A stretch of DNA of 64,000 bases from Bacteroidota bacterium (GTDB taxonomy: Bacteria; Bacteroidota; Bacteroidia; UKL13-3): contig JAZKBU010000001.1 in the NCBI GenBank assembly GCA_040388375.1, forward strand, positions 336,996-400,995, given 5' to 3'. The notes beneath the pieces were generated by a model. That model had not been told where the DNA came from. It made no database searches and was given only the letters and a program-made list of their open reading frames with translations. The position numbers and the translations under genes were made by a program. This document shows, one piece after another, positions 14,678 to 54,007 of this stretch; positions within the stretch are counted from its first letter, which is position 1; every line of letters starts with the position of its first letter.

Positions 14678-14722
14678 TAGTTGCGGAGGCAGGACTCGAA
14701 CCTACGACCTTTGGGTTATGAG
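14678..14722. repeat. Left attachment site (remnant of tRNA-fMet 3' end)
   Basis: Forty-five bases identical to 53933-53977, running from the tRNA anticodon loop through the 3' end plus three bases. The 5' half of the tRNA is missing here, so this copy is not a tRNA gene. Direct orientation of the two copies is the classic product of site-specific integration. Confidence 0.93.
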
Positions 14723-21245: not shown

Positions 21246-21685
21246 GCCCACAATTATTTATAAACGAGCACCGCCTGGCCCGTTTAGGTTTTGCCGAGTT
21301 AAACGGTATAAACCTGCTATGCCAGGCAGTTATAGCCAAGGCCGATAACGATGCCGAAAAAGACAACTATACCCAACTGCAAAGCAATACACTGAAAGTA
21401 GTTAGGCGCAAGCTGGTAAACGAAAACATTATGAGTTACACCGGTATGGATATAACCCAGCAACTCATTTTTTCCGACACCATGCCCAACATACGCATAT
21501 ACACCAGCATGCAAAAATACTTTGGGCGCGAAAGCAACTTTGTTTGGCAGGACTTAAAGGAAATGTACAACGTTATTAAAAACAAACGTATGCGCAACGT
21601 AGGCGAGAAAACCCTGCGCGACATACAATACCACCTTAACGAGCATAACCTATTAGACGAACCACCACCAATAGTAATACAATAA
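21242..21685 (+). CDS. Protein with RNA polymerase alpha-CTD-like helix-hairpin-helix
   Basis: 147 aa. The C-terminal MRNVGEKTLRDIQYHLNEH (about residues 117-135) resembles the helix-hairpin-helix of the RNA polymerase alpha subunit C-terminal domain, which binds DNA minor groove and activators. The N-terminal 110 residues are unlike the alpha subunit. It overlaps both neighbours by 1-4 bp. It may bind DNA or modulate host transcription; the domain match is from the motif only. Confidence 0.55.
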   Translation: MSPQLFINEHRLARLGFAELNGINLLCQAVIAKADNDAEKDNYTQLQSNTLKVVRRKLVNENIMSYTGMDITQQLIFSDTMPNIRIYTSMQKYFGRESNFVWQDLKEMYNVIKNKRMRNVGEKTLRDIQYHLNEHNLLDEPPPIVIQ

Positions 21686-22341
21686 TGAGCACAGCTACAG
21701 AATACATAATTATACAGGGAGAAATGGCATTGTTTTACTCTACCACCATTGGTAAAAAAACAACCTTTTTCCAAAACATAAACATGGTTTTTAAAACCCG
21801 TAAAATACTTGTTTATAAAAACAAAGCCCAGGCGCAAAAGGTGGCCGATAAAAACAATGCCGCCCATAACACCAAATTTAAAGTAGTAGAGTTAAAGCAT
21901 GTAGCCACCAAGCATATTTTAATAATAGGCTTACCCCAGTCAGGCAAAAGCACCAAGGCTTTAGCATTAGCCCAAAGCAACTGCCCGCATAATGGTAATG
22001 TATATCAGGTAATGAGCCCTACCGACTCATTTAAAAGCAAACTTGCTGGTAGTACGGCCCTGGTAATAGATGAAATACCCGCTGATGCCCACTTAACCAA
22101 GTGGATAAAACGAGCCAAAGCCATACAGAAAACTAAAATAATACTTACCTGCCAAACTACCTGCGAGGAGTTAAACCAACTCATTTACGACAAAACACTG
22201 CTTGAAAACTTTGAAATAATAGAGTGCTCAAAGCATGAGAGCACCGAGGCAAAAGCCGTAGCCGCTGTAAAACGCATGTTACAACAGCCGCCTTTAGTTG
22301 GCCCGTTTAAGCCATACCCAGGCCGTACCCGTAACCATTAA
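21685..22341 (+). CDS. Small P-loop ATPase
   Basis: 218 aa. Walker A is GLPQSGKST (about residues 79-87), Walker B is ALVIDE (about 117-122), and a sensor-like ILTCQTT lies near 154. The N-terminal 70 residues are beta-rich and not recognised. Its small size and Q-containing sensor strand are compatible with several phage ATPases, including packaging-type enzymes, but position beside methylase and replication genes also allows a replication role. Unassigned. Confidence 0.6.
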   Translation: MSTATEYIIIQGEMALFYSTTIGKKTTFFQNINMVFKTRKILVYKNKAQAQKVADKNNAAHNTKFKVVELKHVATKHILIIGLPQSGKSTKALALAQSNCPHNGNVYQVMSPTDSFKSKLAGSTALVIDEIPADAHLTKWIKRAKAIQKTKIILTCQTTCEELNQLIYDKTLLENFEIIECSKHESTEAKAVAAVKRMLQQPPLVGPFKPYPGRTRNH

Positions 22342-37407: not shown

Positions 37408-39750
37408 ATGAAAATACAGCAATTAGGTTTTGTAGCAGCCAATAAACGTACCATAAGCCCACTGGGTAAATATGCCGCTTTAATATTACCGAGTACCGGT
37501 ACCAACAAAATATTAATGCCTGATGGTAATACTTTTGATACCGTTAACTACATGGTTGACTTTGTTAAAAAGTACAGCTACCAGGTAGGCCCGTTAGCCA
37601 AGCAGTTGGTTAAAGAAAGTGGGGGTAACCCCAATAGCAGGGAGTTTAAAAAGCGTGTATTCGATTGGATTTATGAGTATGTAGACTACGTACCCGACAA
37701 AGAGGGTGTAGAGCAAATACGTGAGCCCGGGCGTTGTGCCAGGGAGCAAAAAGGCGATTGCGATTGTATGGCTACCCTTGCCAATTCATTATTGGTACAA
37801 GGCGGTGCTAAAGAAGAGCCTAAGTTTAAAAAAATTGCCTTAAGCAGCGATTGGCAGCATGTATACGCTGTATCCGGCCCTTATGTAATTGATCCGGTAT
37901 TGAACCACTTTAACGAGGAGGCCAAAGGTATTACCAAAAGTTACGTGCAGGGTTTAAGCGGCTTAAACGGAATGCCTATACAGCAACTAGGAGCGGTAGC
38001 AGTAACCGTAAAAAAAGATGTTGCTATAACCAGTACAGCCGCACCCGCCAATAACCAAAGCACCGGTAAAACATTTGCCCAAACCAACGAGGCCGGCCAA
38101 ATAGTAATAAGCGTACAGGGTACTGGTACAGGCGGTGCCGTAACCATTACCCCAGGTGCCGGTAGTGGTGTTAATATACAAAGCCTGTTAAACAGCGATG
38201 AGTTAAAAGCAGCTTTATTAGCAGCCGGAAAAAACCCTTTTGAAGAAACCATAAAACGGGCCTTTATAGGTACCACGTTAGCCACCTTTGCCCAAACAAC
38301 CCTTGCCCCGCGCAATAAAAGTTTAAATGGTTTAAGTGGTATAGAAGATATAAACCCGCTTGATGCCGGTAATTTAGATACCGTTTTAAGCAGTGGCGAG
38401 TTACAAAAGTATAGCAAAGATGTTGACAGTGCTTTAAGCAAAATGAACCTGGCCGATACCAAAAAAGTACACAGCCAGCTAAACAAAAACTATGCATACC
38501 TAAAACAAAATACCAGTAGTGCCGAGGTAAGTAAAATAGCCAGCACTCCAACCCCTATAAAAGAGTTAGCCAATAGCAGTGTAGCCAAAGGCCTTATAAC
38601 AGGCGGTGCAACTACCGCAGGTGTGGCAGCCGCCATAAGTATAAGCGGGGCTACAGGTTTAGCCACAGCCACCACCGCTACTGCTTGTGTAGCAAGTTTA
38701 GTATGTGGCGCAGTAGCAGCCGGTATAGCAGCTATAGTAATAGGTTGTGTTTATATTTTTAGCGACAATGCCGATACTACCGTAAATAACTTTATAGACT
38801 GGTTAAGCGGCAAAGGGCCTAGCAGCATGTTGTTTGATAACAACGAGGGCTATAGCGTAAAGGTTGATGTAAATATATATGGTGAGTTAATACGCAACTG
38901 GCGTGCATTGGCTACCGGTAGCACCAGTGGTACCGATACCATGCAAAACCCTAACGATTACTTGCCCATACTGTTAAGCATTTACCAAAACGCACCCATT
39001 AAACCAGGCGAACAATTAATAGTTAACCCCAATAAAACAGTACTACATGCCCAGTTTGATAATGCATTGCGTACCAAGTTTGGTAACGAGTACTGGAGGC
39101 AGTTTTTTTGGATGAAAACCCGGGCATTTATGGTTACCCCCTTGTTAGCCGAAATGCTATACAACGAACCATACACCGACTATAAAGCCAACATACGCAC
39201 ACAGTTTGCAAACGTAAACTGGCAGTTGATAGATGATGAATATTTGAGAGAAACAAAGGACGTGTTAAAGCTTCAGTTACTAATAGCCAAACGCGATCAA
39301 ATAGCACTGGAAAACAGCAAAAACCCAAACAATAAGGCTATAGATGTAAATGAGCCGGCTGTAAGCGGTGCCATACTTTGGATAGGTGGGCAATACAACG
39401 GTACCAAAACCGGTATAATGACCAACCAAAACAACCTGGCACTTAAAAAAGGCGATGTAGTGTTTTTACAGTTTAACGCTGGTACCGCAACCGAGTATAC
39501 AGGTTTACACACCGTTGACAGCCTGGGTAGCGATGATGGGCAATACCCTACCAGCATGTTTGTGGTTAATACACCAAAAACAACCAGTGTAAATGGTAGC
39601 GGAGTGTTTCAGTTACAGGAGGTAGTACCCGCAAACACCGATGTTAAAACAGCCAGTGTAGGTGGTTGGATAGGAGCCCTTTTATTATTGGCTGGTATAG
39701 GTGCCGTAGTAGGCAGAAATTCAAATAAACAAGAACATGAAAAAGCTTAA
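37408..39750 (+). CDS. Transglutaminase-like cysteine protein with C-terminal membrane anchor
   Basis: 780 aa. The N-terminal region has a transglutaminase/papain-like triad: Cys in GDCDCMATLA (about 115-124), His in WQHVYAV (about 150) and Asp in YVIDPV (about 160). Hydrophobic alanine-rich helices occur at about 395-450 and a C-terminal helix at about 755-775. Three LSG motifs are present (LSGLNG, LNGLSG, WLSGKG). It is the largest late protein. It may be a maturation protease, a cross-linker or a wall-degrading entry enzyme; the choice is inference. Confidence 0.65.
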   Translation: MKIQQLGFVAANKRTISPLGKYAALILPSTGTNKILMPDGNTFDTVNYMVDFVKKYSYQVGPLAKQLVKESGGNPNSREFKKRVFDWIYEYVDYVPDKEGVEQIREPGRCAREQKGDCDCMATLANSLLVQGGAKEEPKFKKIALSSDWQHVYAVSGPYVIDPVLNHFNEEAKGITKSYVQGLSGLNGMPIQQLGAVAVTVKKDVAITSTAAPANNQSTGKTFAQTNEAGQIVISVQGTGTGGAVTITPGAGSGVNIQSLLNSDELKAALLAAGKNPFEETIKRAFIGTTLATFAQTTLAPRNKSLNGLSGIEDINPLDAGNLDTVLSSGELQKYSKDVDSALSKMNLADTKKVHSQLNKNYAYLKQNTSSAEVSKIASTPTPIKELANSSVAKGLITGGATTAGVAAAISISGATGLATATTATACVASLVCGAVAAGIAAIVIGCVYIFSDNADTTVNNFIDWLSGKGPSSMLFDNNEGYSVKVDVNIYGELIRNWRALATGSTSGTDTMQNPNDYLPILLSIYQNAPIKPGEQLIVNPNKTVLHAQFDNALRTKFGNEYWRQFFWMKTRAFMVTPLLAEMLYNEPYTDYKANIRTQFANVNWQLIDDEYLRETKDVLKLQLLIAKRDQIALENSKNPNNKAIDVNEPAVSGAILWIGGQYNGTKTGIMTNQNNLALKKGDVVFLQFNAGTATEYTGLHTVDSLGSDDGQYPTSMFVVNTPKTTSVNGSGVFQLQEVVPANTDVKTASVGGWIGALLLLAGIGAVVGRNSNKQEHEKA

Positions 39751-41250: not shown

Positions 41251-41937
41251 ATGAGAAGTAATGTTTTAAACTTACAAGAGTTAGCCACTACCACAAACGT
41301 TTTTGATAGTGCACCAGCCACCTTATTGGAGGGATTAAGAAACGGTACTGCCAAGCAAAACGAAAGTATTTTGTTTGCCCGTAAACAAATGGTATTAGCC
41401 GGCACGCCCGAGTTAATTGATAACGATCAAAGCCGTGCCGATGGTGTTACCGATTTTGAAAAAGGTAAGTTACAAGGTAACCAAGCCTTTTTAGTAACCC
41501 GTATGTTTATTAAATATGCATTCGATGCATCTGACACAGTAGTATACACAAAACGTTACAGCCAGTTTATTTACGCAATTGATAGCTTTGTTTTACAAGC
41601 TACAACTATTGATACCGATGCAGGGGCTACAGGTAACCAAACCGTAGCAGTAAATGCAGCTACCATTCCGGTACAGTTAGAAAATGCAAACTTGGTTTTA
41701 AGCGTAAACAACGCTGTAAAATACCGCAACAAGGTAGGAGCCTTTTTTATAAGAGGTACCCAAACCCAAAAAGTAGCCGATCATGATGACAATTCAGTAT
41801 CGTTGGGACTTGCGCCAATACTTATTTTACCTGAGTCGCCAATACAAGCACAGTTCCGTTTCAACACAGGTGTAACAACGCCAACTGGTGTGCACTTTGT
41901 TGAGTTAGGCTTAGGCGGTGTGTACGTTTACGTTTAG
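41251..41937 (+). CDS. Major capsid protein candidate
   Basis: 228 aa, soluble, without membrane segment. The sequence is beta-rich, with many alternating strands and a C-terminal run ending VELGLGGVYVYV, as in jelly-roll capsid proteins. Support is context: centre of the late operon, its own regulatory repeat upstream, and a very strong hairpin directly after the stop, typical of the most abundant transcript. No HK97-fold features. The length suits a single jelly roll better than a double one. Confidence 0.45.
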   Translation: MRSNVLNLQELATTTNVFDSAPATLLEGLRNGTAKQNESILFARKQMVLAGTPELIDNDQSRADGVTDFEKGKLQGNQAFLVTRMFIKYAFDASDTVVYTKRYSQFIYAIDSFVLQATTIDTDAGATGNQTVAVNAATIPVQLENANLVLSVNNAVKYRNKVGAFFIRGTQTQKVADHDDNSVSLGLAPILILPESPIQAQFRFNTGVTTPTGVHFVELGLGGVYVYV

Positions 41938-44867: not shown

Positions 44868-45581
44868 ATGGCAGATTATAGAATTATAATACCGCACATT
44901 AAAAAAAGCGAGGGCGGTATGAGCCGCAGAAAAGCAGATACGGCCAGTAAAAAACCTGCGCCCTACTTAACCACCGCGTATAATGCCAACACCCGTAAAA
45001 CGGAAACCGCCCGCGATTGGCATACCAACAAAGGCATTACCTGGGAAACCTTTAGCACCAACGGTACCAAGCTGGGCTATGTAGTAAACCAAAAAAATTG
45101 GGAAACCATGCCCGATAGTATTTGGGTACCCATATTTAAAAAAATATACTGGGATGGTGTAGGAGGCGATCAGCTAAAAAGCCAAGCAATAGCCAACTAT
45201 TTAGCCGATTGGAGTTGGGGAGCATATTACACAACAGCCGTAAAAAACTTACAGCAAGTATTAAACCGCAGTTTTGGTAATAACCTAGAAGCAAAAGGAG
45301 AAATAGGCCCACTTACCATTGCGGCCACTAATAAAGTAAACCCTGCGCAGTTGTTAGACTTGCTAAAAGCTGAACATTTAGACTTTTACGCGCAAGTAGT
45401 AAAAGCAAACCCATCGCAACAAAGTAACCTAGAGGGTTGGCAAAACCGTGTAGACGATTTATATGCCTTAAGTAAGCAATACTTAACCCCTGTTAAGGTA
45501 ACCGTAGGCCTTACCGGTTTAATATTATTAAGCCTAGGTATTTGGGGTAGTTACAAACTTTTAAAACCAAGTGCCGCTTAG
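44868..45581 (+). CDS. GH108-type endolysin with C-terminal membrane helix
   Basis: 237 aa. The N-terminal IIPHIKKSEGG holds the catalytic Glu15 of the GH108 N-acetylmuramidase family; DWHTNKGITWETF and the downstream peptidoglycan-binding-like region (LNRSFGNNLEAKGEIGPLT) match the same family. It cleaves cell-wall glycan. One C-terminal membrane helix (about residues 213-231) is unusual and could anchor it in the inner membrane or particle. A candidate holin follows 1 bp later. Confidence 0.82.
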   Translation: MADYRIIIPHIKKSEGGMSRRKADTASKKPAPYLTTAYNANTRKTETARDWHTNKGITWETFSTNGTKLGYVVNQKNWETMPDSIWVPIFKKIYWDGVGGDQLKSQAIANYLADWSWGAYYTTAVKNLQQVLNRSFGNNLEAKGEIGPLTIAATNKVNPAQLLDLLKAEHLDFYAQVVKANPSQQSNLEGWQNRVDDLYALSKQYLTPVKVTVGLTGLILLSLGIWGSYKLLKPSAA

Positions 45582-47217: not shown

Positions 47218-47409
47218 ATGAAAAACAACATCATTATTCCAAACGGTAGCACTTTCAAGGCAGTTTTAACAAACCAGCCAGCACAAAAAGCCGCCCCAAA
47301 AACCAAAAAGGTAGCTAAGAAAGCCGCCAAAAAAGCACCCGCAAAAGCAGCTAAGAAAGTTGCCAAAAAGGTTGTTAAGAAAGCTGTTAAGCAAGCACCA
47401 AAAAAATAA
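47218..47409 (+). CDS. Lys/Ala-rich histone H1-like protein
   Basis: 63 aa. From residue 20 onward it is built of KKA/KKV repeats, strongly basic, like bacterial histone H1-type proteins. It would bind DNA and neutralise charge, for example in a packaged genome. Confidence 0.65.
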   Translation: MKNNIIIPNGSTFKAVLTNQPAQKAAPKTKKVAKKAAKKAPAKAAKKVAKKVVKKAVKQAPKK

Positions 47410-47778: not shown

Positions 47779-48180
47779 ATGAGTAAAATAGTAGTAAAAG
47801 GAGCCGTTAAACGCAAACCTGACCACCTGTATTTTGTAACCGCTAGTGGTGATATTGGCGAGGCAAAAAGAAAAAGCGGTGGTACTAAAGGTGCCAAGCG
47901 TAAAAGCTGTAGCACTAAAGCAAAACCAGCTAAAACCCGCAAGAAAAAAGCTACCAAAAAAGCGGCTGTAAAAAAAACAGTAAGCAAAAAACGTGTAGCT
48001 AAAAAAGTAACAAAAAAGGCAGCAACCCGCAAACCCGTTACAAAAACGGTTAAAAAGAAAGTGGCTAAAAAAGCAGTAAAACGCAAAAGCACCAAAAAGC
48101 CAAGCCCTGCACAAATAGCAGCGCGTAAAAAGTTTGCAACTATGGCCCGTAACAAGGCTAAAAGTAAAAAAAAAAGATAA
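47779..48180 (+). CDS. Lys/Ala-rich histone-like protein, possible frameshift product
   Basis: 133 aa, extremely basic, with KKA/KKS repeats from residue 30 on; likely DNA-condensing. It ends at a run of ten A (48166-48175) followed by AGATAA. A -1 slip on A-AAA-AAA within this run would bypass the stop and join the downstream frame (48180-48350). Whether this is programmed, transcriptional slippage, or a mutation cannot be told from sequence. Confidence 0.6.
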   Translation: MSKIVVKGAVKRKPDHLYFVTASGDIGEAKRKSGGTKGAKRKSCSTKAKPAKTRKKKATKKAAVKKTVSKKRVAKKVTKKAATRKPVTKTVKKKVAKKAVKRKSTKKPSPAQIAARKKFATMARNKAKSKKKR

Positions 48181-48430: not shown

Positions 48431-50944
48431 ATGTTTAAAACTATTCAAACTATAGCCAATGTAAGCCAAATTTTAGGCCTGTTTAAAACAGGACTAAGCG
48501 GGGTTGCGCAAGCTGCTGGCGGCATAAACTTTGCCGTAGTTAAGCAGTGGCAAGAGTTAACCAATAGTTTTTACATACCAAAGCCGGTAAGTACCATTGG
48601 CTATAAACTTACGCCTAACGATAAAGGATTAAACACCATTGTTGCACCCTTTTTACTTAACGATAGTTTAAGGCCAAAATTAAACGGTATTTGCTTTGAT
48701 GAGCACGGCATTTGTGCTACCGATACCCACCAATTAATTTTTATACCTGGTAAACATACTTACCGAGGTATTTATTTATTCCCGCAATTTGTAAAAAACA
48801 ACAAAGCTTCGCGGGAGTTACATAAACAAGCATTTAAAAATAACAAACATGAGGGCGATCCATACCCCGACTACATGTCCGTTATTCCTAAAAGTAGCAC
48901 CCACACTTTTAAGGTCGATATTTTAGCCCTTAAAACATTTGCAGAGGCAGTTAAAGCAACGCAACTGAATAATGCTACCATAAACCCAATAATATTACAG
49001 TACGGTAAAAGCAACGGTGTTTTTAATTTAATAGCCCTAAACTGCGATAAGCTTATACAAGTACTAACAGGCGTTTTACAGTTACACGGTACCAGTTGTT
49101 ATATGCACATAAGCGCACCTAACAGGGCCGTAGTGTTTACGCCTGGCAAAAAAATTACTAAAAGTCAGTTTATTATTTTGCTCATGCCGTTAATGCTTGC
49201 CGATGATGAGTGGCCGCAAGATATAGACTTTGAAACCCAACTACAGGCTAGGTACGATGTAAGCAAAAACCAAGTTTATAGCGGCAATAAAAAATACTAT
49301 ACTATTAATACCATACCTGGTAAAGAACAAATAGTTTACCCTGGCAATATGAGTAAAGGCGATTTAGATTTACTCAAAAAAAATATACCGGCAAAACCTG
49401 CGCTTTACGTACTTAAATATGTTTTTGTTGAAAATAACAAAGCCTATGTTTCCAGTGATACTGAAAATTTTATTAGTGTAAAAGCCAATTTGCCAACAGG
49501 CCTATACAACCTTACAAAAGGAGGTTTAATGCTATCAGCCACTAATGCTGATGAGTACCCAAAACCACATAAAGCACAAAATAATATGGATAATTTAAAA
49601 GCTAAAAAAATAGCAACCAATAAGAAAACTAAGCCGATGAAAGCAGCTAAAAAGGTATTAAATACTAAAAAAGTAAAGCCTTTAGTGGCTGGTAAAAAAA
49701 CTAACCCACCCATAGTACGTAACATAAAAAGCTTAGAAATACAGCACATAACCAAGTATGTAAACTTGAATGGTAAAAGCAAGCCGGCAGCAAGCGTAAT
49801 AAACTTAGGTAAGCAGGTAGCAAAAGCCATTGCCGGTAAAAGTTATAACGAGCATACCGGTATGTTAAACGAAATACATAGCAAGCTTACCACAGCCGTA
49901 AAAGCTATTGCCAAGGCAGGTGTTGCAAAGGTTGATTTTAACATAGATAAAGACTTTAAAGCCAAGTTACAAAATGTACTTAAAAACGTAAAGGTACGTG
50001 TACAAACCAATGTGCTTGCTGGAGTTACCCCCACTCTACCTAAAACAATTAAAACCGTAGCCGATGTAAAAACTTTTTTTAAATATTTAACAGAAGTTGA
50101 CAACGTTTCGTTTCACCCTGATGATGATTTTAACGATACTATAAACTTTAATACAAAAAAAAGTACTTACACAAAAGCCCAGGCCAAATTACTTAACAAA
50201 CTGATGGATCAGGCATTTACTGTATGCACAAAAAACAAGGTTGATATTTATGAGATAGGTTTTGAAACAACGCCTATTGCTAAGTATAGTAAGAGTAAGG
50301 CTAAAAAAAAAAGCCTTAGCGGAGTTGGAACGGTGGATCAGGGAGGAGTTAGTGAAGTAAAGCCAATACAGACACAAAGCAACCCTATATTAAGTGCTTC
50401 GCAAATATTACAGCAAAGCTATAAAACAAATGAGTTAGGACCATACACCAAGTATTTTGGTAAAGTAGCCCACAATTTTGATTTAATGCTGCATGGAGAG
50501 CCAGGGGCCGGTAAAACATATTTTTTATTAAGGTTTGCCAATTGGTATGCTGAAAATATTGGGCCTGTACTATTTTTAAGCGATGAGGAATACGGAACAG
50601 TAACCCTACAATTAAAAATAGAAGAAACAAAAAGTACTTCGCCTAACCTATACTTTGTACAAAGTCTTAAGGGTGTAAACATTAGTAATTATGCCTTGGT
50701 TATACTTGATAGTATAACATCAACAGGGTTAACACTGGAAGACTATAAAGCCATGCGAATTGCCAACCCTGATACTGCAGTAATAGCCATTTTTCAAAAA
50801 AATAAAGATGGTAGCTTTAAAGGTGGTAAAGACTGGGAGCATGAAATAGAAATATGCGGAGAGTTGGTTTTTGATGAGAAAAACAAAAGGTGTATACGAG
50901 TTTACCGTAACCGATATGGGGTTTTAGGTAAGCAAAGAATATAA
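48431..50944 (+). CDS. Sliding-clamp-like and RecA-like ATPase fusion
   Basis: 837 aa. The N-terminal third has clamp-like elements: GICFDEHGICATDTHQL (about 78-95) resembles the ATDGHRL strand of DnaN, and YPDYMSVIP (about 143-151) resembles its FPDY.RVIP segment. A Lys-rich linker (about 390-450) and a small domain with HPDDDFND (about 555) come next. The C-terminal domain has Walker A HGEPGAGKTYF (about 685-695) and Walker B LVILDSITS (about 755), as in RadA/RecA-type ATPases. I know no protein with this combination. Confidence 0.65.
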   Translation: MFKTIQTIANVSQILGLFKTGLSGVAQAAGGINFAVVKQWQELTNSFYIPKPVSTIGYKLTPNDKGLNTIVAPFLLNDSLRPKLNGICFDEHGICATDTHQLIFIPGKHTYRGIYLFPQFVKNNKASRELHKQAFKNNKHEGDPYPDYMSVIPKSSTHTFKVDILALKTFAEAVKATQLNNATINPIILQYGKSNGVFNLIALNCDKLIQVLTGVLQLHGTSCYMHISAPNRAVVFTPGKKITKSQFIILLMPLMLADDEWPQDIDFETQLQARYDVSKNQVYSGNKKYYTINTIPGKEQIVYPGNMSKGDLDLLKKNIPAKPALYVLKYVFVENNKAYVSSDTENFISVKANLPTGLYNLTKGGLMLSATNADEYPKPHKAQNNMDNLKAKKIATNKKTKPMKAAKKVLNTKKVKPLVAGKKTNPPIVRNIKSLEIQHITKYVNLNGKSKPAASVINLGKQVAKAIAGKSYNEHTGMLNEIHSKLTTAVKAIAKAGVAKVDFNIDKDFKAKLQNVLKNVKVRVQTNVLAGVTPTLPKTIKTVADVKTFFKYLTEVDNVSFHPDDDFNDTINFNTKKSTYTKAQAKLLNKLMDQAFTVCTKNKVDIYEIGFETTPIAKYSKSKAKKKSLSGVGTVDQGGVSEVKPIQTQSNPILSASQILQQSYKTNELGPYTKYFGKVAHNFDLMLHGEPGAGKTYFLLRFANWYAENIGPVLFLSDEEYGTVTLQLKIEETKSTSPNLYFVQSLKGVNISNYALVILDSITSTGLTLEDYKAMRIANPDTAVIAIFQKNKDGSFKGGKDWEHEIEICGELVFDEKNKRCIRVYRNRYGVLGKQRI

Positions 50945-51044: not shown

Positions 51045-52169
51045 ATGTCAGCAAGCACAGACGAATTACTAAGCGGCTTACCCACATGGGCCTTACTCCC
51101 AAGAATATCAGCCAATGGGCAGTTACCGTTTTGGAACAATACAACAAAAAAATGGGAAGCCGGTGATGCTCCCAGCGGTTTTAACCCTGATGCCGCCTAT
51201 ACATTTAACAACAGTGTGCTGTTTAACCAGGTACCGCAATACCTAGGTATTAATTTAGCCACTGTTCAGGACTTAACAAGCGCATTGGCCCCTTACAGCA
51301 CTACCACGCAAATGAACGATGCTATTTCTGCCTCGTACAATATGATATTAGCCGGTGCCCCTGCTGGTTACGATACTTTGTTAGAAATAAGCAACTATAT
51401 AGCCACCGATACTACCGGAGCGGCTGCCATAAATAACGCCATAGCTGCCAGGTTACTTATTACCGATGTTATTGATAACGTAACCAGCACCAATACCAAT
51501 AAAGCATTAAGTGCTAACCAGGGTAAACTGCTAAACGATGCTTTAAGCGGTAAAGCCAACGTATCTACTACAAATGTTTTTTCACAAAACAATACGTTTC
51601 AGGCTAATGTATCAGTAGGCCATGCCAGTATACAAACTGATAGGTTTGCCGCTAAGTCAGATGGTACCAACCGTATAGGCCGCTTTAGCAATAGTGCCGG
51701 TACTATTTTTATGGATATTGATACCAATGCCCGGGTACTTACCATTACCGAGGGTAGTACCGTTACCACCTTACAACAAATAAGTGGTAACACCAGTTTG
51801 TTTAATAACTCAAACAGCAATTTTAATATACAAACAGGTGTAGGTGGTAATATATCTGCCGTGTTACTTTCAGCCGGTGGGGTTGATTTACGCATAAACA
51901 ATGTTTCGCAATTATTGGTTGATAACAGTGGCTATGTAACTTTAAAAAGCCGCTTGCGCTGGGGTAGTAACAGTAGTACTCCGATGTTAATAGCCAATGG
52001 AGCCCAGTTAGATGTAAAACTAGCCGATAATAGTGCCTATACTTATATACGTGGCTTTTTCAGGTTTGAGCAAATGCCAACCAGCGAAGTACGCTCTAAT
52101 ACCCATTATTTAACAGTAAAGCTGCAAGATGGTACCGATTTTCTTTTACACGGTTCTTTAGGTGGCTAA
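51045..52169 (+). CDS. Receptor-binding fibre or spike protein
   Basis: 374 aa, Asn/Thr/Ser-rich and repetitive. VIDNVTSTNTNKALSANQGK (about residues 147-166) is a motif frequent in phage tail-fibre and knob repeats, followed by beta-helix-like sequence with many Gly and Asn. LSGLPTW lies near the N-terminus. Likely trimeric host-recognition protein. Has its own promoter. Confidence 0.75.
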   Translation: MSASTDELLSGLPTWALLPRISANGQLPFWNNTTKKWEAGDAPSGFNPDAAYTFNNSVLFNQVPQYLGINLATVQDLTSALAPYSTTTQMNDAISASYNMILAGAPAGYDTLLEISNYIATDTTGAAAINNAIAARLLITDVIDNVTSTNTNKALSANQGKLLNDALSGKANVSTTNVFSQNNTFQANVSVGHASIQTDRFAAKSDGTNRIGRFSNSAGTIFMDIDTNARVLTITEGSTVTTLQQISGNTSLFNNSNSNFNIQTGVGGNISAVLLSAGGVDLRINNVSQLLVDNSGYVTLKSRLRWGSNSSTPMLIANGAQLDVKLADNSAYTYIRGFFRFEQMPTSEVRSNTHYLTVKLQDGTDFLLHGSLGG

Positions 52170-52626: not shown

Positions 52627-53820
52627 CTAAAAACTTAAACTAAATCTTGCGCTTACATCTTCTGCAGGTTCGTCAAGGTACTTTTGTATATAATTTTGGA
52701 AAGATTGTAAACTGGTGTGGCCACTTATAGCCATTATTTCCTTGGTGTTTAAGTTGTACTTGTTTGCATTTTTTACCAAGTCAATAATAAATGTGTGGCG
52801 CAAGGCATACATGGTTTGCTCCGGTTCAATGCCCAACAGCTTTTTAATTTTGCCAAACCGCCTGGTAAAGTAATCTCTATTGGTACGTACCGGCCCTGGT
52901 TCACCCTTGCTGGTAAAAATATAATAATGGCCCGGTAAGTTGGCTATGTCTAAAGCTTCAAAATCGGCCTTGTGTACAGCAAATATGCGTTTAATTTTGC
53001 GTACCCTTTGTTTTGCTTTTACAGCCTCTAGCGTTAGTTTGTCTAACTGTAGGTCAATATCCTTTACCTGCATTTTAACTATTTCTACAGGCCTTATGCT
53101 AAAGTAAATTTCACACCTTAAAAAGTAGTAAAAATAAATATCGTACTCACGTACCCAGTCGGCTATGCGTTTAAACTCAGCCGCGCTGTATGGTTTATTG
53201 GTATGGCTTTTAGTAGGTAGTTTTTCAATATCCTCGCATGGGTTTTCTGTTACCCATGTTCTGTTTATTTTTTTCATTGAAGTAAACATACTGGTTAAAT
53301 CAACCAGGTGGTTATTACGGCTGCGGGCTGCATTTTTCCGCTCTATCATTAAGTAGTCAAGGTAAGCAAATATATGCTCGCTGGTAACCTCATTGGGTTT
53401 TAAAGTACCCATGCGTTTACTAATAAGCCAGTTTTTAAAAAGGTTTACATGGCTTTTGTATACCGGCAAGGTTGTTTCTTCATCAACATACGTTTGTTTA
53501 TGTTTTAAAACGGCCTCAAGCGCATCAATAATAGTGGTGTAATTAACCTTTTTTTCAGGTAAGTGTTTTAGGTCAATGCCCGGGTACGGACAAAAGCCAC
53601 TTTGTAGCTGGGCCAGCATTTTAAGCCTGATTTTCTCAAACTCGGCTAGGCGTTTATCTACATCTTTAATTCTGTTGGCATTTTCCCTGGGCGCAAAAAA
53701 ACGTTCTCGTTCGCCAGTTATAGGGTGGGTAAAGTAGTAGTCTACTCTCCATTTTTTTGAAATATCCAGTCCGCCATCGTAAAGTTGGGGTACTGAATAA
53801 AGCGGGCTTTCATTATCCAT
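52627..53820 (-). CDS. int: Tyrosine recombinase (integrase)
   Basis: 397 aa from the ATG at 53820; an in-frame GTG at 53847 would add nine residues. The N-terminal arm- and core-binding domains are followed by the catalytic domain. Catalytic residues are Arg in SIRPVEIVKMQ, Lys/beta region, YALRHTF (Tyr replacing the usual first His), GHTS, and nucleophile Tyr in QNYIQKYL. It lies 113 bp inside the right attachment site next to the intact tRNA gene, the usual place for an integrase that uses a tRNA site. Confidence 0.93.
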   Translation of the reverse strand: MDNESPLYSVPQLYDGGLDISKKWRVDYYFTHPITGERERFFAPRENANRIKDVDKRLAEFEKIRLKMLAQLQSGFCPYPGIDLKHLPEKKVNYTTIIDALEAVLKHKQTYVDEETTLPVYKSHVNLFKNWLISKRMGTLKPNEVTSEHIFAYLDYLMIERKNAARSRNNHLVDLTSMFTSMKKINRTWVTENPCEDIEKLPTKSHTNKPYSAAEFKRIADWVREYDIYFYYFLRCEIYFSIRPVEIVKMQVKDIDLQLDKLTLEAVKAKQRVRKIKRIFAVHKADFEALDIANLPGHYYIFTSKGEPGPVRTNRDYFTRRFGKIKKLLGIEPEQTMYALRHTFIIDLVKNANKYNLNTKEIMAISGHTSLQSFQNYIQKYLDEPAEDVSARFSLSF

Positions 53821-53889
53821 TGTAAGGTTGGTTAAATGTGCCCCCACATTTTAACCCCTACAAAATTGAAATAATTGTTTGTTAGCTAT

Positions 53890-53932: not shown

Positions 53933-54007
<75 letters not shown>

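What the first reader, a model, noticed from the sequence alone, without database searches (positions are those of the whole stretch)
48431..50944. Sliding-clamp-like domain fused to a RecA-like ATPase in a late operon
GICFDEHGICATDTHQL and YPDYMSVIP align by eye with two DnaN segments, and the C-terminus has Walker A and B of a RadA/RecA-type ATPase, with a basic linker between. Such a fusion is not known to me. Placement among particle genes, not replication genes, suggests a DNA-loading or packaging motor tethered by a clamp.
Basis: partly seen in the sequence, partly recalled or inferred. Interest (0 to 1): 0.8.

Follow-up and report, generated by a model that had tools for sequence, protein, structure and literature searches.

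The report
Clamp-RadA fusion in tailless prophage
A prophage of a Bacteroidota bacterium, related to a little-known tailless phage, carries among its particle genes one protein that joins part of a bacterial sliding clamp to a RadA-type DNA motor, probably to handle the phage genome in or with the particle; each half has known relatives, but the two joined were seen only here.

Summary
ORF 48431-50944 (837 aa) has a DnaN-type clamp region (residues ~56-258) and a RadA/Sms-type ATPase core (~650-837). The clamp is DnaN domains II+III only (VIA-align Z 16.3 on E. coli beta 131-365). Domain I is not detected and both domains are shortened, while the client-cleft motifs remain, so a DNA-encircling ring is doubtful. 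The ORF lies in the late block of a 39.3-kb provirus bounded by a 45-bp repeat at tRNA-Met. [quoted passage not shown] The ATPase is a distant homologue of SSIP-1 gp40, annotated structural and predicted in print as its packaging ATPase. In a sample of 395 genomes, 40 of 44 testable gp34-like loci have this ATPase downstream (five of them weak). The clamp recurs in other Bacteroidota multidomain proteins, with methylase or SNF2 parts; joined to RadA it was seen only here. I read it as a virion-borne polyvalent protein: a genome-handling, perhaps packaging, ATPase plus a cleft module that docks host clamp clients. RadA domains in polyvalent proteins are published; the clamp module appears uncatalogued in the texts I could search.

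The parts
48431..50944 (+). ORF of 837 aa: clamp II+III - unassigned 259-387 - basic linker - helical domain - small domain - RadA-like ATPase
   Evidence: ORF; domains
48596..49204 (+). DnaN-type clamp, domains II+III (residues 56-258), with cleft motifs at 48686-48736, 48863-48889 and 49178-49198
49205..49591 (+). residues 259-387, unassigned; by eye like DnaN domain I (ATNADEYPKPH) but not significant
   Evidence: -1.5 bits; best of 100 shuffles 3.6; mostly pLDDT under 50
49592..49726 (+). basic linker, residues 388-432 (15 K/R, no D/E)
49727..50035 (+). helical domain, residues ~433-535, shared with other RadA-bearing proviral proteins and with the ArdC-N/zincin protein (859 aa) of the G005 provirus
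50036..50302 (+). small domain, residues ~536-624; relatives in IMG/VR contigs L002 and L003, in L003 as a 101-aa ORF
50378..50941 (+). RadA/Sms-type ATPase core, residues 650-837; Walker A 50495-50518, Walker B 50696-50713, RNRYG 50906-50920
37408..39750 (+). late protein (780 aa) homologous to SSIP-1 structural protein gp34
41251..41937 (+). conserved late protein (228 aa); capsid role only guessed
44868..45581 (+). glycosyl hydrolase 108 endolysin of the late module
51045..52169 (+). fibre-like protein with phage tail fibre repeat, next gene downstream
52627..53847 (-). tyrosine integrase
14678..14722 (.). left copy of the 45-bp att repeat
53933..53977 (.). right copy of the 45-bp att repeat, overlapping tRNA-Met (53935-54007, -)

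Best explanation
A late, probably virion-borne polyvalent protein of an SSIP-1-like tailless provirus. Shown: the ORF lies in the late module of a 39.3-kb tRNA-Met provirus; its C-terminal domain is homologous to SSIP-1 gp40; its N-terminal domain is DnaN domains II+III with conserved cleft motifs; in sister proviruses the same slot holds ArdC-N/zincin polyvalent genes. Inferred: (1) like gp40 it is in or on the particle; (2) the RadA-type ATPase, probably as a hexamer, moves phage DNA, most likely during packaging (about 0.5 given step 1); (3) the clamp part is not a ring but a cleft module that binds host proteins carrying clamp-binding motifs (polymerase, ligase, repair enzymes), bringing them to phage DNA at packaging or just after entry, or keeping them from the host clamp; (4) the basic linker holds DNA.
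For: Homology to gp40: blastp E 5e-7 and, with an HMM built without SSIP-1, 66.3 bits (both against 32 SSIP-1 proteins). gp40 and the 2319-aa methylase protein gp43 are annotated structural in the SSIP-1 record. Co-occurrence: 40 of 44 testable gp34-like loci have the ATPase downstream, five of them weakly. In a loose P-loop motif listing I saw no other such gene common to the elements; the provirus's early P-loop gene was found in 1 of 25 genomes. RadA type: TIGR00416 E 3.2e-7; profile to PDB RadA 5lkm E 6e-13. Clamp; the polyvalent clamp profile matches in 47 of 51 genomes, mostly 373-396-aa frames that look like chromosomal DnaN. Of six columns invariant in 7 polyvalent clamps and 4 DnaN, four lie in the three cleft motifs. 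Polyvalent slot: ArdcN and MPTase-PolyVal in the neighbours of two sister late modules (G005, G142). Phage polyvalent proteins are typically near virion genes and thought to be packaged (PMC5512222 section 32).
Against: No proteomics of this provirus. tblastn of the ORF or its ATPase against all phage records did not list SSIP-1 at E 0.01, so the gp40 link rests on the targeted search and the HMM. Packaging ATPases of this virus type are of the FtsK/HerA kind (recalled), not RadA. RadA-type relatives also sit in small integrative elements in which no SSIP-1-like late gene was found; 50 of 85 RadA-like places kept were not within 30 kb of a gp34-like place; 4 testable gp34-like loci have none within ~19.8 kb. 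SSIP-1 capsid proteins show no sequence similarity to the candidate here. Most phage polyvalent proteins come from terminase-portal phages (PMC5512222 section 6), and no terminase was recognised here. SSIP-1 gp41, also structural, has a P-loop-like motif too. The ATPase-half model is poor (pLDDT 48; best Foldseek hit RadA 8rxc, E 7e-4). In the PDB profile search tandem RecA constructs rank above RadA (3cmu, E 8.1e-16, over positions 39-121 only). The clamp-RadA fusion is a single case.
Confidence: 0.42

Rival explanations
1. A polyvalent protein that acts only after entry: carried with the genome, its RadA-type core processes branched or circularising DNA and its clamp part recruits or blocks host replication and repair enzymes. 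It has no role in packaging.
For: Iyer et al. describe SMS/RadA domains in Bacteroidetes polyvalent proteins and suggest manipulation of incoming DNA (PMC5512222, passage). The ORF lies where relatives carry ArdC-N/zincin, N6-methylase and SNF2 genes. The family also occurs next to an integrase outside SSIP-1-like modules. SSIP-1 gp43, methylase-type, is annotated structural.
Against: Frequent co-occurrence with the SSIP-1-like late module (40 of 44 testable) and stand-alone copies (gp40, G005, pPP10) suggest a core particle function.
Confidence: 0.33
2. One reading: a ring-forming sliding clamp that tethers a packaging motor to DNA.
For: Clamp fold; a motor-type ATPase with a published packaging prediction for its homologue gp40; T4 offers an indirect clamp-packaging link through gp55 (PMC9026906, passage). 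Residues 259-387 look by eye like a permuted domain I.
Against: Domain I not detected: -1.5 bits, below the best of 100 shuffles (3.6); region modelled mostly below pLDDT 50; segments lost inside domains II and III; in the relatives I aligned only domains II+III were matched.
Confidence: 0.1
3. A non-virion replication or recombination helper that merely sits at the end of the late operon.
For: DnaN and RadA are cell replication and repair proteins; no DNA polymerase was recognised among the 21 provirus proteins scanned.
Against: Late-module position recurs across the group and gp40 is annotated structural.
Confidence: 0.1

Closest known systems
SSIP-1 gp40 (Salisaeta icosahedral phage 1, NC_017983.1)
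   Same: homologous RadA-type ATPase in a related virus, near gp34
   Different: 320 aa, no clamp; annotated structural and cited as a predicted packaging ATPase, which is untested here
SMS/RadA domain of Bacteroidetes polyvalent proteins (Iyer et al. 2017, PMC5512222)
   Same: RadA-type domain in a multidomain mobile-element protein (abstract, sections 6 and 32, and passages read)
   Different: there mainly in conjugative elements or plasmids; main text has no 'sliding clamp', 'DnaN' or 'clamp' (supplements not seen)
Bacterial DnaN beta clamp
   Same: fold and sequence of domains II+III, cleft motifs
   Different: no domain I found, both domains shortened, fused to other domains
RadA/Sms (PDB 5lkm, 8rxc)
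   Same: ATPase core with Walker A, Walker B and a KNRFG-like RNRYG
   Different: no Lon-like domain after the core (7 residues remain); score far below the family cut-off
Cystovirus P4 packaging motor (recalled, from no call)
   Same: precedent for a RecA-type packaging NTPase
   Different: packages RNA; no relationship tested

Membership tests
DnaN sliding clamp | clamp fold with DnaN sequence homology | tested here: met
DnaN sliding clamp | three domains in the order I-II-III | tested here: not met
   domain II starts near residue 56, leaving no room for domain I before it; none detected after 258 by sequence
DnaN sliding clamp | client-binding cleft residues | tested here: met
   ATDxxxL, YPDY and MP positions align with host DnaN; their role in the cleft is recalled
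DnaN sliding clamp | encircles DNA as a ring | not testable with these tools
   needs protein
RadA/Sms | RecA-type core related to RadA | tested here: met
   TIGR00416 E 3.2e-7; profile to 5lkm E 6e-13, 8rxc E 6.9e-13
RadA/Sms | KNRFG motif | tested here: inconclusive
   RNRYG at 826-830; relatives KNRYQ, KNRFG, KNRLD, others with GRF or GRY
RadA/Sms | Lon-like C-terminal domain and curated score | tested here: not met
   protein ends 7 residues after RNRYG; 29.5 bits against a cut-off of 403
SSIP-1 gp40 family | sequence homology and late-module setting | tested here: met
   not found by tblastn at E 0.01
SSIP-1 gp40 family | present in the virion | not testable with these tools
   only the SSIP-1 record annotation
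FtsK/HerA/A32 packaging ATPases | match to FtsK/A32-type Pfam models | tested here: not met
   no such family among the Pfam matches of the ORF (E up to 1) or the ATPase (E up to 0.1); Walker B is DS
Polyvalent proteins (Iyer 2017) | two or more domains of unlike activity, near virion genes, with a catalogued domain | tested here: met
   clamp plus SMS/RadA domain, late operon; sister slot with ArdcN and MPTase-PolyVal
Polyvalent proteins (Iyer 2017) | delivered into the new host with the DNA | not testable with these tools
   needs virion proteomics
SSIP-1-like viruses | gp34-like and gp40-like proteins | tested here: met
SSIP-1-like viruses | capsid protein homology | tested here: inconclusive
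   no detectable sequence similarity; not folded

The most novel reading that the evidence does not exclude
The SSIP-1-like tailless viruses package DNA with a RadA/RecA-family motor instead of an FtsK/HerA ATPase, and in this provirus the motor carries a cleft-only half-clamp that docks host clamp clients, coupling packaging or genome entry to host replication and repair.
Probability: 0.27. Interest if true: 0.85.

Novelty: new variant of a known kind. Interest (0 to 1): 0.6.

Why it matters
It adds a half-clamp module to the domains known from polyvalent-type proteins and suggests phages borrow the client-binding cleft of the host clamp. It links a predicted packaging ATPase of an orphan virus (SSIP-1) to the RadA family. 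Strong relatives of SSIP-1 gp34 were found in 47 of 395 genomes of the class (E 1e-19 or better), which gives many hosts in which packaging by a RadA-type motor can be tested.

Tried and rejected
A chance resemblance to DnaN: rejected by the HMM, hhalign and fold results. A permuted domain I at 259-387: looked at by eye, not supported (-1.5 bits against 3.6 for the best of 100 shuffles), left open. The early P-loop protein 21685-22341 as the group's packaging ATPase: found in 1 of 25 genomes. Clamp relatives in IMG/VR: none by single protein or alignment; none in phage records with two clamp queries or in plasmids with one. gp34-like relatives in IMG/VR: none confirmed. The late protein 41251 as a homologue of SSIP-1 capsid proteins: no similarity. 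An RNase H-like part in L051: seen by eye only, no Pfam support. Prophage fF4 of Flavobacterium columnare as a relative: its paper describes a terminase and tail genes (PMC7761591, passages). Foldseek with the ATPase half: model too poor to lean on. Weak points: the capsid role of 41251 is a guess; the HMMs contain sequences from the loci they were run on, and only the test leaves SSIP-1 out; PHROG also labels the clamp region 'DNA polymerase' (phrog_6615, E 1.6e-5) and 'RusA-like resolvase' (phrog_3007, E 0.0015). Literature: searches, in an open-licence library only; in their listings I saw no paper on a clamp-RadA fusion or on Bacteroidota proviruses of the SSIP-1 kind. A passage of PMC4958249 mentions several proviruses of the vertical single beta-barrel group that includes SSIP-1; I did not check their hosts. 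Supplements were not open to me. The SSIP-1 paper (Aalto 2012) was not held, so what I say of SSIP-1 comes from its record and from papers that cite it.

Full report
What is there. The ORF 48431-50944 (+) codes for 837 aa. Residues 56-258 are DnaN domains II+III: an HMM of four host DnaN proteins gives 31.4 bits on 149-257, and hhalign gives probability 96.3 and E 1.7e-9 over DnaN 147-371. The AlphaFold2 model of residues 30-400 has mean pLDDT 58; over window residues 59-259 the ten-residue means are 63-89 except 46 at 120-139, and most of the rest is under 50. Of the 50 Foldseek rows shown, 47 are titled as DNA polymerase III beta or sliding clamp and three by complex (8xla twice, 5x06); the best E is 2.4e-8, with 180 matches at 1e-3 or better. 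VIA-align, a second look at those matches, places model 27-226 on E. coli beta 131-365 (Z 16.3, 167 aligned, rmsd 3.0). The C-terminus (650-837) is a RadA/Sms-type core: TIGR00416 E 3.2e-7 (29.5 bits; cut-off 403). A seven-sequence profile matches PDB RadA 5lkm (E 6e-13) and 8rxc (E 6.9e-13) over positions 23-182; tandem RecA constructs score as well or better (3cmu E 8.1e-16, 3cmt E 4e-13) but over 39-121 and without a single stretch that passes alone. Between clamp and ATPase lie a stretch without assignment (259-387), a basic linker (388-432; 15 K/R, no D/E), a helical domain and a small domain that recur in other mobile-element proteins.

The clamp is partial. Domain II begins near residue 56, so DnaN domain I cannot precede it; residues 256-400 score -1.5 bits against the DnaN HMM, below the best of 100 shuffles (3.6). 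Against a host DnaN, about 18 residues are missing in domain II and 22 in domain III (read from the alignment). Kept are the ATDxxxL, YPDY and MP motifs, with exceptions in single relatives (for instance GP for MP in L047). Six columns are invariant in 7 polyvalent clamps and 4 DnaN; four of them are the T and L of the first motif and the P of the other two. That these form the client-binding cleft is recalled knowledge of DnaN. A cleft-binding module is therefore likelier than a ring, but this is inference.

The clamp recurs elsewhere. A sample of 395 genomes of the class gave 11 with a match: the window's own, three in multidomain proteins (1560, 764 and 722 aa; the first cut by its contig end), and seven in 376-395-aa frames. 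Those seven hold ORFs of 372-377 aa that match the clamp HMM; two were read in full as DnaN. The proteins have 722-2270 aa; one starts at a contig end and one runs off the stretch held. Pfam finds an N6-methylase domain in L047, L048 and L050 and an SNF2/helicase pair in L049, but no partner domain in L051 or L052; L052 and L053 lie next to a 1434-1440-aa gene. In 51 genomes (all 47 with a gp34-like match at E 1e-19 or better, plus four others), 47 matched the clamp profile; strong matches (E 2.6e-75 or better) were only in G276, G275, G000 and G064, the others being 273-443-aa open frames, mostly 373-396 aa like chromosomal DnaN. Among 67 ORFs (duplicates included) with a strong RadA match in the loci held, only copies of the window protein also matched the clamp.

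The provirus. A 45-bp direct repeat, 14678-14722 and 53933-53977, the latter overlapping tRNA-Met, brackets a 39.3-kb element with a tyrosine integrase. Its late protein 37408-39750 matches SSIP-1 gp34 (33% over 90 aa, E 9e-7 in the whole phage collection; HMM without SSIP-1 70.5 bits). SSIP-1 is a membrane-containing icosahedral phage of PRD1-adenovirus-type architecture (PMC6356626 and PMC4958249, passages). The record annotates gp34, gp40 (ATPase) and gp43 (2319-aa methyltransferase) as structural. The ATPase of the finding matches gp40 when searched against 32 SSIP-1 proteins (E 5e-7; HMM 66.3 bits), but tblastn of the ORF or its ATPase against all phage records did not list SSIP-1 at E 0.01. 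No terminase or portal was recognised among the 21 provirus proteins scanned with Pfam or PHROGs. Capsid homology to SSIP-1 was not detected.

The group. A gp34-like profile found 54 of 395 genomes, 47 of them at E 1e-19 or better. Of the 69 places at that level, 35 have the RadA-like ATPase 9.6-22.0 kb downstream on the same strand (median 14.1 kb). Of the other 34, 20 were fetched then: 4 have it (E 1e-12 to 1e-15), 4 lack it within about 19.8 kb, and 12 run into a contig end within 17 kb. Of the remaining 14, one (G302) has a weak copy (E 3e-13), one (G142:C28) ends at a contig end, and 12 were not examined. Hence 40 of 44 testable, five of them weak. Outside this sample, SSIP-1, G005, two loci of G001 and the Persicobacter plasmid pPP10 also have both. 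Against the link: of 85 RadA-like places that I kept from a cut list, leaving out chromosomal-looking ones by hand, 50 are not within 30 kb downstream of a gp34-like place. Some of these are contig breaks next to a helicase-type gene (L125; L130 by eye). Others (L089, L122, L126, L127) lie near a phage integrase (Pfam), three of them with an N-terminal cysteine motif; none of five late-module HMMs other than RadA itself matched there, though the contigs of L122 and L127 are only 14-15 kb long. In relatives the ATPase may be a gene of its own (gp40, 320 aa; G005, 175 aa; pPP10, 174 aa) or fused behind other domains.

Domain swap. In the G005 sister provirus, 10 genes match 10 genes of the window's late module by blastp in the same order. 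In place of the clamp fusion stand an 859-aa protein with ArdcN (E 9e-20) and MPTase-PolyVal (E 4e-35) domains followed by the same helical domain, then a separate 175-aa ATPase, then the fibre-like gene. The late module of G142:C28 is followed by an ArdcN/MPTase-PolyVal gene too, those of G172 and G302 by an N6-methylase gene. So the slot exchanges cargo while the ATPase tends to stay.

Mechanism. Iyer et al. (PMC5512222; abstract, sections 6 and 32, and passages) describe polyvalent proteins as packaged or transferred with DNA, place phage ones near virion genes, and list SMS/RadA domains in Bacteroidetes, mainly of conjugative elements or plasmids. A review lists SSIP-1 gp40 among predicted packaging ATPases and leaves the role open (PMC4124505, passage). 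I put about even odds on packaging versus post-entry work for the ATPase if the protein is virion-borne. The clamp part could recruit host clamp clients or compete for them; a 2026 paper reports that RecBCD binds the clamp in E. coli (PMC13254535, start of abstract in a search listing only), one possible client among many.

Verdict. Observation confirmed; interpretation partly supported. The parts are known kinds; the half-clamp as cargo of such proteins and its fusion to a gp40-type ATPase are new variants within the searches made.

Noticed in passing
window 14678-53977: Exact provirus ends: 45-bp repeat at tRNA-Met, 39.3 kb, related to SSIP-1.
   Followed up: yes
L089 7674-13221, L122 8679-14200, L126 218-4652: Possible small integrative elements: phage integrase (Pfam), a 263-270-aa gene and a RadA-like ATPase with an N-terminal cysteine motif; no late-module HMM match nearby. 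Possibly satellites.
   Followed up: partly
L142 (NZ_AP025302.1, Persicobacter plasmid pPP10): Plasmid with ParA/ParB genes carrying gp34-like, 41251-like and RadA-like genes: a likely SSIP-1-like phage-plasmid.
   Followed up: partly
L143 2959-3615 (LR756504.1): A 636-kb uncultured phage record has a stand-alone 218-aa RadA-like ATPase (36.7% identity to the window ATPase) with KNRFG.
   Followed up: no
window 47218-47409 and 47779-48180: Two lysine/alanine-rich histone H1-like proteins just upstream of the finding (by eye).
   Followed up: no
window 21685-22341: Early P-loop protein found in 1 of 25 genomes searched.
   Followed up: partly
L075 26863-33822 (SSIP-1 gp43): Annotated structural, 2319 aa, with methylase and ParB_N matches: by architecture a polyvalent protein annotated as part of a virion.
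   Followed up: partly
L076 9965-14596: The 1543-aa protein next to the RadA protein in the G172 provirus joins an SNF2 domain to a Zeta_toxin-type domain (E 1.3e-26).
   Followed up: no
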